Source of the DNA: an endosymbiont of Bathymodiolus septemdierum str. Myojin knoll
Lineage (GTDB): Bacteria; Pseudomonadota; Gammaproteobacteria; PS1; Pseudothioglobaceae
Length of the DNA stretch: 64,000 nt
Direction: 5' to 3'
Assembly (NCBI RefSeq): GCF_001547755.1
Contig: NZ_AP013042.1
Location: 1,302,001 to 1,366,000 of the forward strand
How positions within the stretch are numbered: the stretch's first letter is position 1; every line of letters starts with the position of its first letter. This document shows positions 52,854-59,383 of this stretch, piece by piece. The notes under the pieces were generated by a model that saw only the letters and a program-made list of their open reading frames with translations, was not told the DNA's origin and made no database searches. Made by a program: the position numbers and the translations under genes.

Positions 52854-55313
52854 ATGAACTATATTAGTCTTTTTAGTAGTGCAGGAGTTGGTTGTTATGG
52901 CTTTAAACAGTCAGGTTTTGAGTGCATTGCCACAAATGAACTACTAGAAAAAAGACTCAATATACAAAAAGCAAACAAAACTTGTTCTGACCCAAAAGGT
53001 TATATTTTGGGAGATATTTCTAAGTCAGAAACAAAACAAAAACTGCTTAATAAAATTTACAGTTGGCAAGATAAAAATAAGAAACAAGATATTGATTTTC
53101 TAATTGCTACTCCGCCTTGTCAAGGTATATCCGTAGCAAATCATAAAAAAAGAAATGATGAAATTAAACGAAACTCTTTGGTTACAGAGTCAATAAAAAT
53201 AGTTTCTGATATAAAACCTAGAGTCTTTGTTTTTGAAAATGTAAGAGGCTTTTCAAAAACATTATGCATAGATACAGATAATAAAGAAAGAGAAATAGGT
53301 TTCGCCATAGAGAAAAATTTAGCAGCACAATATCATATAGAAAATAGAATTATTAATTTTAAAAATTATGGCTCAAACTCTAGTAGAACTAGAACATTAA
53401 TCATAGGCACTAGAAAAGATGTAGAAGATTTAAACCCGCTTATGCTTTTTCCAGATTTAAAAAAAGAAAAAACTCTGAAACAGTCCATAGGTAAATTACC
53501 TAGACTAAATAACATGGGAGAAAGCGACATAAATGATCCATTGCATAAATTTAGAAAATATTCTAATCGCATGGTGCCATGGATAATAAATACAAAGTAT
53601 GGATGCTCTGCATTCGACAATAAAAATCCAAAATTCAGACCGCATAAAATAGTGGATGGAAAAATAGTTGAAAATAAAAATAAAAACGGAGACAAATATA
53701 AAAGATGTATTTGGGAGAAGGTGGCACCATGCATACACACAAGAAATGATATTTTAGCTAGTCAATCTACTATTCATCCTGTAGATAATAGAGTTTTTAG
53801 TATTAGAGAATTGATGTTATTAATGACTATTCCCAAAAGTTTCAAATGGTTTAAATTTGATATAAGCCATGACAATATTGATACTTTAATAAAAAATAAT
53901 GAAATAAATATTAGACAATCAATAGGAGAGGCGGTTCCAACTGCTATATTTAAAAATATAGCAGTTAAGTACAAAAAGCTTATTGGTAAAAAGCAATTGC
54001 CCTTAAGACAAATTAAGTTATTAATCGAAAGTCAAGAACTCTCAAATATTAAAAAATTAATCAACTTTTTAAATAAAAACCTAGACAACTATTCTTTTAC
54101 AGACTTATCGAAAATATCAGAAATAGCCAACTCAAAGAGATTAAAAAATTCAGCTTTTTATACTAGAAGGGATGTTGTTTTTAGGTCAATAAAATACATA
54201 CCAAAAATTACAAATAAAGAGGTTAAAATTTTAGAGCCATCTGTTGGTGTTGGTAATTTTCTCCCTGATATAATTAAAAAATATGAATCATACGAAAGTG
54301 TCACAATAGATGCTATTGATATAGACCCTTATAGTATAAAAATAGCAAAAATTTTAATCAAAAAAATAAAGATTCCTCAACATATAAAATTAAATTTTAT
54401 AAATGATGATTTTTTGTTACATGATTTTAAAAATAAAAAATATGATATTGTTGTAGGAAACCCTCCATTTGGTAAGGTGCTAGATACTTCTCTAAAAAAC
54501 ACATACAAGGAAAATTTATTTAATACAGGCACTAATAACATATTTTCTTTTTTTATGGAGAAGTCACTGCAAATCTCTAGTTATATTTCTTTAATTATTC
54601 CAAAAAGCATACTATCATCTCCAGAATTTGAAAAAACTAGGATATTGTTAGAAACTAGGAAATTTATCTCCATTTATGACCATGGAGAAAAAGGATTTAA
54701 AGGAGTTAAAATAGAAACCATATCTGTATTGTTTTCAAACAAAAAAACTATAGATAAAGATTTAGTTGTATTGGAATCAGCTATAACAAAAGAATGCTCC
54801 ACCAAAAAGCAATCTTATATATTGGACTCTTCTTTACCTATTTGGCTTTTATATAGAAATCATGCTTTTGATGCCACATTTATAAAACTTAAAGTAGATA
54901 TTTTCAAATATTTTAGAGATAGGCAAATTACTAGAAAAGATTTATCTAGCAAAGGAAAATATCAAATAATAAAATCTAAAAATTTATCTCTAGATGGTAG
55001 TTTAGTCAATAATGAAACAAATAGCTTTTTTATAGATGATATCGCTAAATATGTAGTAAAAAAATTCCTAAATAAGATGTGCATAGTAGTCCCAAATTTA
55101 TCATATTATCCTAGAGCTGCTTTTTTGCCAAAAAATAGTGTAGCTGATGGCTCGTTAGCTATTTTTGAAACAGATGAGAATATTACAAAAGACGATATTG
55201 ATTATTTTAAATCAGATGAATTTACTAAATACTACCGTATAGCTCAGAATTATGGCACAAGAACCCTTAATATAAATAGGAGTACCACATTTTTTTGGGG
55301 AATAAGAAAATAA
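52854..55313 (+). CDS. Fused C5-cytosine and N6-adenine DNA methyltransferase
   Basis: An 819-residue protein. The N-terminal half is a C5-cytosine methyltransferase: SLFSSAGVGCYGF binds SAM, catalytic Cys89 is in TPPCQGIS, and FENVRG follows. The C-terminal half is a gamma-type N6-adenine enzyme, with AFYTRRDVV, SAM loop EPSVGVGNF from residue 461 and catalytic NPPFG at 536-540. Two activities in one chain suit an asymmetric type IIS site needing a different mark on each strand, as known for Alw26I/Eco31I/Esp3I. It is very AT-rich with frequent ATA codons, unlike the core genes. Confidence 0.9.
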   Translation: MNYISLFSSAGVGCYGFKQSGFECIATNELLEKRLNIQKANKTCSDPKGYILGDISKSETKQKLLNKIYSWQDKNKKQDIDFLIATPPCQGISVANHKKRNDEIKRNSLVTESIKIVSDIKPRVFVFENVRGFSKTLCIDTDNKEREIGFAIEKNLAAQYHIENRIINFKNYGSNSSRTRTLIIGTRKDVEDLNPLMLFPDLKKEKTLKQSIGKLPRLNNMGESDINDPLHKFRKYSNRMVPWIINTKYGCSAFDNKNPKFRPHKIVDGKIVENKNKNGDKYKRCIWEKVAPCIHTRNDILASQSTIHPVDNRVFSIRELMLLMTIPKSFKWFKFDISHDNIDTLIKNNEINIRQSIGEAVPTAIFKNIAVKYKKLIGKKQLPLRQIKLLIESQELSNIKKLINFLNKNLDNYSFTDLSKISEIANSKRLKNSAFYTRRDVVFRSIKYIPKITNKEVKILEPSVGVGNFLPDIIKKYESYESVTIDAIDIDPYSIKIAKILIKKIKIPQHIKLNFINDDFLLHDFKNKKYDIVVGNPPFGKVLDTSLKNTYKENLFNTGTNNIFSFFMEKSLQISSYISLIIPKSILSSPEFEKTRILLETRKFISIYDHGEKGFKGVKIETISVLFSNKKTIDKDLVVLESAITKECSTKKQSYILDSSLPIWLLYRNHAFDATFIKLKVDIFKYFRDRQITRKDLSSKGKYQIIKSKNLSLDGSLVNNETNSFFIDDIAKYVVKKFLNKMCIVVPNLSYYPRAAFLPKNSVADGSLAIFETDENITKDDIDYFKSDEFTKYYRIAQNYGTRTLNINRSTTFFWGIRK

Positions 55314-58421: not shown

Positions 58422-58883
58422 TCAGTTACGCCGATAGCTAATCGCCTCAGTTAAATGTTGGATGTTGACGGTATCTGAGTTGTCTAAATCAGCAATGGTT
58501 CTGGCAACTTTTAAGATGCGGTGGTAGGCACGGGCAGATAGATTGAGTTTGTCGATAACGCTGGATAATAAGTGTTTGTTGTCTGCATTTAGATTGGTCA
58601 GTTTTTCGATTTCGTCGGGAGCAAGTTTGTCGTTAGATTTACCTTGTCTTTCTAATTGGATGTTGTGGGCTTTGACGACTCTTTAGCGGATGGTTTCGCT
58701 ATTTTCTATTGTGTCCGTACTTTGGTTGAGTAATGTCTCTTTAGGCAGGGGTGGTACGGTTAATACCATATCAATTCTATCTAGTAGCGGTCCTGATATT
58801 TTGTTTTTGTATCTGTCAATTTGGTCAGCTGTGCAATGGCATTTAGCTGTGCCATCGCCATAATAGCCGCATGGGCAGGGGTT
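58422..58883 (-). pseudogene. comM: comM (yifB) 3' fragment, copy 1, with nonsense codon
   Basis: Encodes the C-terminal part of the Mg-chelatase-like ATPase ComM/Yif[35 protein letters not shown], then AYHRILKVARTIADLD and a short end. After SETIR a TAA (58685-58683) replaces the Gln codon found in copy 2. The fragment begins exactly at the NPCPCG block and its N-terminal 340 residues are missing. ComM is a known integration target for mobile elements in gammaproteobacteria. Confidence 0.85.
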
Positions 58884-58935
58884 CTGTGCCTTGTTACCGT
58901 CTCTCATATTTGTTGTTCCAAAGCCTATTGCAGAA

Positions 58936-59337
58936 ATGCCTAAAGAATTAATCACACTTGGCGACCATATTAAAAAGAAAAGGTTGGAAAATAATTTGTT
59001 TCAAAAAGATGTTGGAATAATCATAGGAACTGATAATTTTACTATAGTTAATTGGGAAAAGAATAGCACTAAAAGTATCCCTGCAAAATATTATCCTAAA
59101 ATTATGGAGTTTTTAAATTATTGTCCGCTGGAAAAAATACCCACAACCATAACCGAGAAAATTAAACTCCATAGAATTCATCGAGGCCTTAATCAGAAGA
59201 AATTTACTCAACTGTTAAAAGTTGACCCAACTGCTGTTAAATTTTGGGAGAGCGAGGAAAGAAAGTCAAAATTATTTTTAGTAAGCATCAATAAAAGATC
59301 GAACAGTTTGTGGCATAATTACCCTTTAAATAATTAA
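58936..59337 (+). CDS. Two-HTH XRE family regulator, copy 1
   Basis: About 133 residues from ATG 58936 (an in-frame start at 58891 lies inside the comM fragment boundary). The first HTH is [20 protein letters not shown] with IVNWEKN; the second is [20 protein letters not shown] with [12 protein letters not shown]. The last 25 residues differ from copy 2, so the end has decayed or been replaced. It is divergent from the comM fragment and directly precedes the G8 promoter; it may regulate the payload. Confidence 0.75.
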
Positions 59338-59352
59338 AATATACATTTGCGC

Positions 59353-59383
59353 TTGACAAGTGTATGCAAGGGGGGGGTATATT
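59353..59383 (+). promoter_or_regulatory. Promoter with G8 tract in the spacer
   Basis: A perfect TTGACA (59353-59358) and TATATT (59378-59383) are separated by 19 bases, the last eight all G (59370-59377). Loss of two G would give the optimal 17-base spacing. This is the classic layout of a phase-variable promoter. Confidence 0.7.

What the first reader, a model, noticed from the sequence alone, without database searches (positions are those of the whole stretch)
59353..59383. G8 tract in a promoter spacer: likely phase-variable switch
A perfect TTGACA and a TATATT lie 19 bases apart with eight consecutive G in the spacer, in a very AT-rich region. Slippage of the G run would change spacing between 17 (strong) and longer (weak), as in known contingency promoters. 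It drives the surface barrel/peptide genes, the type of gene often under such control.
Basis: seen in the sequence. Interest (0 to 1): 0.75.

Follow-up and report, generated by a model that had tools for sequence, protein, structure and literature searches.

The report
Conserved poly-G tract inside a promoter
A run of eight Gs sits exactly between the two recognition boxes of the promoter for a peptide-export gene in a deep-sea mussel symbiont, and runs of 8 to 11 Gs sit in the same place before the same gene in some distant bacteria, which suggests a slippage-driven on/off switch, though switching itself has not been seen.

Summary
It is the only G8 on either strand of the 1.47 Mb genome. The gene 36 nt downstream encodes a FapF-like outer-membrane channel (best PDB match FapF, Z 23.4), followed by a peptide precursor with a conserved leader motif and, beyond a terminator-like hairpin, a C39 peptidase. 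This is the layout of the Fap and Neisseria nap systems. New here: 7 of 27 homologous barrel loci examined, all among the 15 at 42% or more identity, have one G8-G11 run upstream of the barrel gene; in 6 of the 7 good -35/-10 boxes flank it. Hosts are mussel symbionts, Limnohabitans and related genomes. Run length and position differ between lineages, and in 6 of 7 a stop codon separates run and gene. Best reading: a promoter-spacer contingency tract, like porA/opc/fetA, on a nap/Fap-type peptide exporter. Against: within-strain variation could not be tested, and two related Limnohabitans-genus genomes carry G8 and G11 with the same 19-nt spacer.

The parts
59353..59358 (+). -35 hexamer TTGACA (6 of 6)
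   Evidence: hexamer scores
59370..59377 (+). G8 tract in the promoter spacer, abutting the -10 hexamer
   Evidence: counterparts of 8-11 G in six other loci
59378..59383 (+). -10 hexamer TATATT (5 of 6); spacer 19 nt
59414..60283 (+). FapF-like outer-membrane beta-barrel, 289 aa, GTG start; AAAAGG ribosome-binding-like sequence just upstream (read by eye)
   Evidence: ORF; AlphaFold model pLDDT 77; FapF best PDB match; homologues
60340..60579 (+). Peptide precursor (79 aa): hydrophobic N-terminus that reads as a Sec signal (by eye), leader motif LSTTEMKKTEG at 60484-60516, 20 aa after the motif
   Evidence: homologues
60604..60639 (+). Intrinsic-terminator-like hairpin, 15 bp, ending in a T run
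   Evidence: -16 kcal/mol, z -5.57, 0 of 200 shuffles as stable. The pattern scan did not list it
60645..60672 (+). Second promoter-like site TTGACA-N16-CATAAT (11 of 12) before the downstream genes
   Evidence: 20 sites found in the region against 16.3 in shuffles, so suggestive only
60653..60817 (+). Small hydrophobic ORF, 54 aa, conserved in symbiont relatives
60944..61486 (+). Membrane-protein-like ORF, 180 aa (hydrophobicity judged by eye), conserved in symbiont relatives
   Evidence: no Pfam family
61483..62112 (+). C39 peptidase, stand-alone with no ABC-transporter domains in its 209 aa
   Evidence: Pfam PF03412 E 5.3e-24; NCBIfam FapD model E 5e-24, below that model's cut-off
58936..59337 (+). 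Upstream gene with two helix-turn-helix stretches; ends 15 nt before the -35 hexamer

Best explanation
The G8 run is a contingency (simple-sequence-repeat) tract inside the -35/-10 spacer of a sigma-70 promoter that drives a FapF/NapF-like outer-membrane channel gene and the adjacent leader-peptide gene. Slipped-strand mispairing would add or remove Gs and move the spacer between about 17 nt (strong), 18 nt (intermediate) and 19-20 nt (weak), so that genetically near-identical cells differ in how much channel and peptide they make. The stand-alone C39 peptidase, behind a terminator-like hairpin with its own promoter-like site, would stay expressed. Shown: promoter geometry, identity of the genes, recurrence of the tract with different lengths and positions in other lineages, and absence of a translational route in 6 of 7 loci. 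Inferred: promoter activity, slippage, its effect on transcription, and export of the peptide through the channel.
For: (a) Exact geometry and the only G8 in the genome. (b) 7 of 27 barrel loci have one run of 8-11 Gs upstream of the barrel gene, 33-86 nt from its approximate start; all 7 are among the 15 loci at 42% or more identity (counting the window) and 0 are among the other 12. (c) 6 of these 7 have hexamers matching 10 or more of 12 on both sides of the run, against 1 of 37 control G8+ tracts; that one control, L087, itself lies before a lipoprotein-like gene in a same-genus genome. (d) The chance of a sense G8 within 150 nt upstream of a given gene is at most 0.00005 to 0.0012 in the four genomes counted. 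(e) Run length and its distance to each hexamer vary between loci, unlike a fixed protein site. (f) In 6 of 7 loci an in-frame stop separates tract and start codon. (g) porA, fetA and opc are known promoters with homopolymers between -10 and -35 (passages of PMC2791445 and PMC5320596).
Against: No reads or second isolates of one species were available, so no within-strain variation was seen. L019 (G8) and L092 (G11) both measure 19 nt and line up without a gap over the spacer, as if run length changed by substitution at constant spacing (read by eye). The window and B. heckerae symbiont both have G8. L096 has poor hexamers (8 of 12, spacer 15; 332 of 2000 flank shuffles as good). 20 of 27 homologous loci have no tract, so it is not needed for the system. 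The tract-bearing loci do not form one clade (5 changes on the tree, 80 of 500 shuffles as low), so inheritance of one ancestral element is not established. G8 is short for fast slippage.
Confidence: 0.65

Rival explanations
1. The promoter has a fixed, deliberately poor 19-nt spacer and the G-run is a structural or regulatory element. Expression is turned on by an activator that reshapes the spacer, as in MerR-type promoters (recalled), not by slippage.
For: Spacer is 19 in the window, L019 and L092, and can be read as 19 in L094. L019 and L092 keep 19 nt although the run differs by 3. A helix-turn-helix gene lies immediately upstream.
Against: Spacers of 17-18 also occur (L015 18; L018 17 or 21; L094 17 or 19). 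The run's place within the spacer is not fixed: 0-6 nt from the -10 box and 3-11 nt from the -35 box across the seven loci (counted). The upstream gene gave HTH_19/HTH_3 matches and no MerR match. No dyad in the spacer was noted by eye.
Confidence: 0.2
2. The run is a neutral chance homopolymer in a real but constitutive promoter.
For: G8 as such is expected about 0.4 times per 64 kb by shuffling. 20 of 27 homologous loci do without it.
Against: It is the sole G8 in 1.47 Mb, and runs of 8-11 recur before the same gene in six other loci, against a chance of at most 0.0012 per gene in the four genomes counted.
Confidence: 0.1
3. The tract works on translation or mRNA (a longer reading frame through the tract, or a leader structure) rather than on promoter spacing.
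For: In L092 the barrel frame is open through the tract with start codons before it. In the Neisseria nap island the tracts are inside reading frames (PMC11798529).
Against: In 6 of 7 loci a stop in the barrel frame lies between tract and start codon. The tract lies upstream of the predicted transcription start, so it would not be in the mRNA.
Confidence: 0.04

Closest known systems
Promoter-spacer homopolymer phase variation: porA (poly-G), opc and fetA (poly-C) of Neisseria (passages read in PMC2791445, PMC5320596)
   Same: Homopolymeric G/C tract between -35 and -10 of an outer-membrane protein gene; tract lengths in the same range (porA G6-G8 and fetA C10-C14 in Table 1 of PMC5320596)
   Different: Switching is measured there and only inferred here. 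The controlled gene is a FapF-like peptide channel rather than a porin, adhesin or siderophore receptor, and the hosts are mussel symbionts and freshwater betaproteobacteria.
Neisseria nap island (napF, napR, napABC, napH, napP; PMC11798529, abstract, section 5 and passages read)
   Same: FapF-related outer-membrane channel, small leader peptides, an inner-membrane protein and a stand-alone C39 peptidase; predicted phase variation by homopolymers
   Different: There the tracts lie in reading frames (poly-G in napR, poly-T in napC); here the tract is in the promoter of the channel gene. The gonococcal barrel relative (39% identity) has no G7+ run in the 250 nt upstream. I did not establish whether the gonococcal barrel and C39 loci I fetched are napF and napP.
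Fap functional-amyloid system of Pseudomonas (FapF channel, FapD C39 peptidase)
   Same: Channel fold (Z 23.4 to 5o65) and C39 similarity to the FapD model
   Different: The substrate here is a 79-aa precursor with 20 residues after the motif, not a large repeat amyloid (recalled). The FapD match is below that model's cut-off (84.8 of 330 bits). The barrel aligns to FapF residues 88-406 only, so the N-terminal part of FapF has no counterpart.

Membership tests
Promoter-spacer contingency tract (porA/opc/fetA type) | Homopolymer located between recognisable -35 and -10 elements | tested here: met
   window 11 of 12 hexamer bases, spacer 19; 6 of 7 tract-bearing loci at 10 or more of 12
Promoter-spacer contingency tract (porA/opc/fetA type) | Tract length differs between related genomes | tested here: inconclusive
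   8, 8, 9, 8, 11, 11, 9 across species, but not within a species; the only alignable pair with different lengths (L019, L092) keeps the same 19-nt spacer
Promoter-spacer contingency tract (porA/opc/fetA type) | Tract length varies within a clonal population | not testable with these tools
   no reads held; one genome per species; the related G005 assembly has no readable promoter there and contains homopolymers over 200 nt
Promoter-spacer contingency tract (porA/opc/fetA type) | Expression depends on tract length | not testable with these tools
   needs reporter or RNA data
nap/Fap-type peptide export system | FapF-fold outer-membrane channel | tested here: met
   Foldseek E 4.5e-13; Z 23.4, rmsd 2.7 over 237 residues. 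A COG4313 channel (4rl8) scores Z 22.1, so fold alone does not separate the two; identity (19% against 9%) and genomic partners favour FapF
nap/Fap-type peptide export system | Stand-alone C39 peptidase nearby | tested here: met
   PF03412 E 5.3e-24; 1.2 kb downstream of the barrel
nap/Fap-type peptide export system | Small precursor with a double-glycine-type leader | tested here: inconclusive
   an L-S-x-x-E-M-x-x-T-[EQ]-G motif in 18 of 22 loci scanned (window included; none in L015, L019, L096, L097); but the window has G-E, not G-G, where cleavage is expected, so cleavage by C39 is inferred
nap/Fap-type peptide export system | Peptide is cleaved and leaves the cell through the channel | not testable with these tools
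   experiment needed
MerR-type 19-nt-spacer promoter | MerR-family regulator encoded alongside | tested here: inconclusive
   the adjacent gene matches HTH_19/HTH_3; no MerR match listed for it at E up to 1; a distant regulator is not excluded

The most novel reading that the evidence does not exclude
A promoter contingency module travels with, or repeatedly arises in front of, NapF/FapF-type peptide-export operons in gamma- and betaproteobacteria, so that only a fraction of cells in a mussel gill symbiont population make the channel and a Trp-rich peptide: a stochastic division of labour in lysis, strain competition or host signalling inside a mutualistic symbiosis.
Probability: 0.25. Interest if true: 0.75.

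Novelty: new variant of a known kind. Interest (0 to 1): 0.55.

Why it matters
Phase variation is studied mostly in pathogens. In the held library no paper contains 'Bathymodiolus' and 'symbiont' together with 'phase variation' or 'phase variable', nor 'Limnohabitans' with 'phase variation' (a bounded search). If the tract switches, a beneficial chemosynthetic symbiont would carry a stochastic on/off control over a peptide-export system whose gonococcal counterpart promotes autolysis, and the same control would exist in free-living freshwater bacteria. It can be tested on mussel-gill metagenome reads by counting the G-run.

Tried and rejected
Rejected: a translational switch (stop between tract and start in 6 of 7 loci). 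Rejected: a tract unique to this genome or its assembly (seen in six other loci). A phage or plasmid origin was sought: no match of the barrel in phages; 5 records of the plasmid collection matched, 3 Acinetobacter and 2 gonococcal records of 2.2 Mb filed there; none in viral contigs. A tract in the promoter of the Halomonas, Acinetobacter, Helicobacter or Neisseria relatives was looked for and not found. An Rfam RNA in the operon: none at the gathering score. Same-species length variants: genus searches of two tract-bearing genomes gave no further copy (1 of 3 and 1 of 2 genomes, the query genome itself); 3 of 90 in the genus of Limnohabitans WS1, all used; 3 of 83 in the window's family, of which L105 is identical to L015 and G005 has an unreadable promoter region. 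I tried to find the nap island itself in a gonococcal record; the C39 stretch fetched lacks a barrel match, so it was not identified.

Rows dropped or not counted: L029 (gonococcal copy like L027), L105 (copy of L015), L090/L091 (copies of L018/L019), L030 (not; no G6+ run upstream of its barrel), and the weaker matches other than L031-L033. L102 was examined for the tract but left out of the tree (under 170 aa). Control tracts longer than 13 or near a locus end were dropped, and some control loci overlap (for example L060/L081), so the 37 are not all independent. In some searches the tract of each locus was picked by a TTGA[CT] or TTGCA upstream of it, without that condition, lists exactly one G7+ run per tract-bearing locus.

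Full report
Observation. A G8 in a 64-kb window is not in itself surprising (24 of 100 shuffles have one), but it is the only G8 on either strand of the 1,469,434-base genome. A chance 8-mer would fall inside a spacer flanked by hexamers this good at 0.05% of strand positions in the window. The tract is intergenic: a helix-turn-helix gene ends at 59337, and the barrel ORF starts at a GTG at 59414 with a stop in its frame 12 nt after the tract.

Organism. 

What the promoter drives. The first gene encodes a 289-aa beta-barrel. Pfam has no family for it above cut-off, but its AlphaFold model (mean pLDDT 77) matches the FapF secretion channel best, with Foldseek E 4.5e-13 and Z 23.4, rmsd 2.7 over 237 residues. 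A COG4313 channel is close behind (Z 22.1), so the assignment also rests on the neighbours. Next comes a 79-aa precursor with a hydrophobic N-terminus and the motif LSTTEMKKTEG. An L-S-x-x-E-M-x-x-T-[EQ]-G motif occurs in 18 of 22 loci scanned. After a strong hairpin (60604-60639, -16 kcal/mol, z -5.57) follow a promoter-like site, a 54-aa ORF, a membrane-protein-like ORF and a stand-alone C39 peptidase (PF03412, E 5.3e-24; nearest NCBIfam model FapD, below cut-off). The switch would therefore act on channel and peptide, while processing looks separately transcribed. That division is inferred from sequence.

Recurrence of the tract. A scan of the species-genome collection with the C39 protein gave 12 loci. 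Searches with a barrel alignment gave more: class 29 of 369 genomes at E 0.001, most of them weak; Limnohabitans genus 3 of 90; its family 5 of 399; its order 9 of 399; the window's own family 3 of 83. In 27 barrel loci examined (window plus 26), 7 have a single G7+ run in the 250 nt upstream of the barrel, each of 8 to 11 Gs. They are the window G8, B. heckerae symbiont L015 G8, Limnohabitans L018 G9 and L019 G8, G420/L092 G11, G587/L094 G11 and G572/L096 G9. All 7 are among the 15 loci at 42% or more identity to the window barrel (the window counted); none are among the 12 more distant ones (Helicobacter, Acinetobacter, Neisseria and others). The other 8 of those 15 have none: L016, Halomonas L020, L093, L095, L097, L098, L099 and L101; for L016 the upstream region is unreadable.

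Geometry in the relatives. Best hexamer pairs around the run: window TTGACA-19-TATATT; L015 TTGACA-18-TATTAA; L018 TAGACA-17-TATAGT or TTGATA-21-TATAGT; L019 and L092 TTGACT-19-TAAAAT; L094 TTGACA-17-GATAAA or -19-TAAAGT; L096 only TTGCAA-15-TAGAGT. Six of 7 reach 10 of 12; among 37 control G8+ tracts from 30 loci, 1 does. That one, L087 in same-genus genome G003, is TTGACT-18-TATACT around a G8, about 40 nt before a 313-aa lipoprotein-like ORF: possibly a second locus of the same kind in these symbionts. In the four genomes counted, the chance of a sense G8 within 150 nt of a given gene start is at most 0.00005 to 0.0012.

Mechanism. Recurrence of the run, with differing length and differing position relative to the boxes, fits a slippage tract better than a protein site. 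With a 19-nt spacer the sequenced allele is predicted weak, and loss of one or two Gs would bring it to 18 or 17. This is the arrangement reported for porA, fetA and opc (passages of PMC2791445 and PMC5320596). Results against it: L019 and L092 have nearly the same flanks and runs of 8 and 11, yet the same spacer length, so run length there changed by substitution or was compensated; the tract-bearing loci are not one clade (5 changes on the tree, 80 of 500 shuffles as low); L096 has weak boxes; 20 of 27 loci lack the tract; and no within-species variation could be examined.

Comparison with known systems. The operon's parts match the Fap system and the Neisseria nap island, where napF is FapF-related, napP is a C39 peptidase, napABC are small leader peptides promoting autolysis, and phase variation is predicted from a poly-G of 6-12 in the napR frame and a poly-T in napC (PMC11798529: abstract, section 5, passages). 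Gonococcal records contain relatives of the window's barrel (39%) and C39 (56-59%), but the stretches fetched did not hold both, so I do not claim they are NapF and NapP. The barrel relative has no G7+ run upstream. The difference is the place of the tract: promoter here, reading frames there. No paper describing this operon's tract appeared in the listings; only the papers named above were opened.

Verdict. It is a new variant of a known kind: known promoter-spacer phase variation, on a nap/Fap-type peptide exporter, in mutualistic and free-living hosts, with the tract retained or regained across divergent lineages.

Noticed in passing
L087:1501-1508 (G003, same genus): Another G8 lies in a promoter spacer (TTGACT-18-TATACT) before a 313-aa lipoprotein-like ORF: a possible second promoter contingency locus in mussel symbionts.
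   Followed up: partly
59424-59452: TTATTT hexamer repeated 4.8 times, in frame inside the barrel's N-terminal hydrophobic segment; copy-number change would lengthen or shorten it by two residues. Not repeated in L015 (by eye).
   Followed up: partly
58483-59264 and 62195-62994: Imperfect direct repeat (84-85% in ungapped blocks) flanks the operon: a magnesium-chelatase-like fragment plus helix-turn-helix gene upstream and a longer copy downstream, suggesting insertion or duplication at this site.
   Followed up: partly
L015:2633-3370 and L017:1100-1560: In the B. heckerae and B. brooksi symbionts transposase-like sequence (by eye) interrupts the barrel or lies where the barrel should be, upstream of the peptide gene, so the channel is broken in some symbiont lineages.
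   Followed up: partly
L016:655-6621: The Lau B. septemdierum symbiont record has two tandem copies of the operon, one with frameshifts; the G005 assembly also contains T and G homopolymers, one G run of 211, and is unreliable for tract lengths.
   Followed up: partly
52854-55313: Fused cytosine-5 methylase plus Eco57I-type methyltransferase ORF of 819 aa, followed by a 404-aa ORF with an HNH-like stretch (by eye): a probable restriction-modification locus.
   Followed up: no
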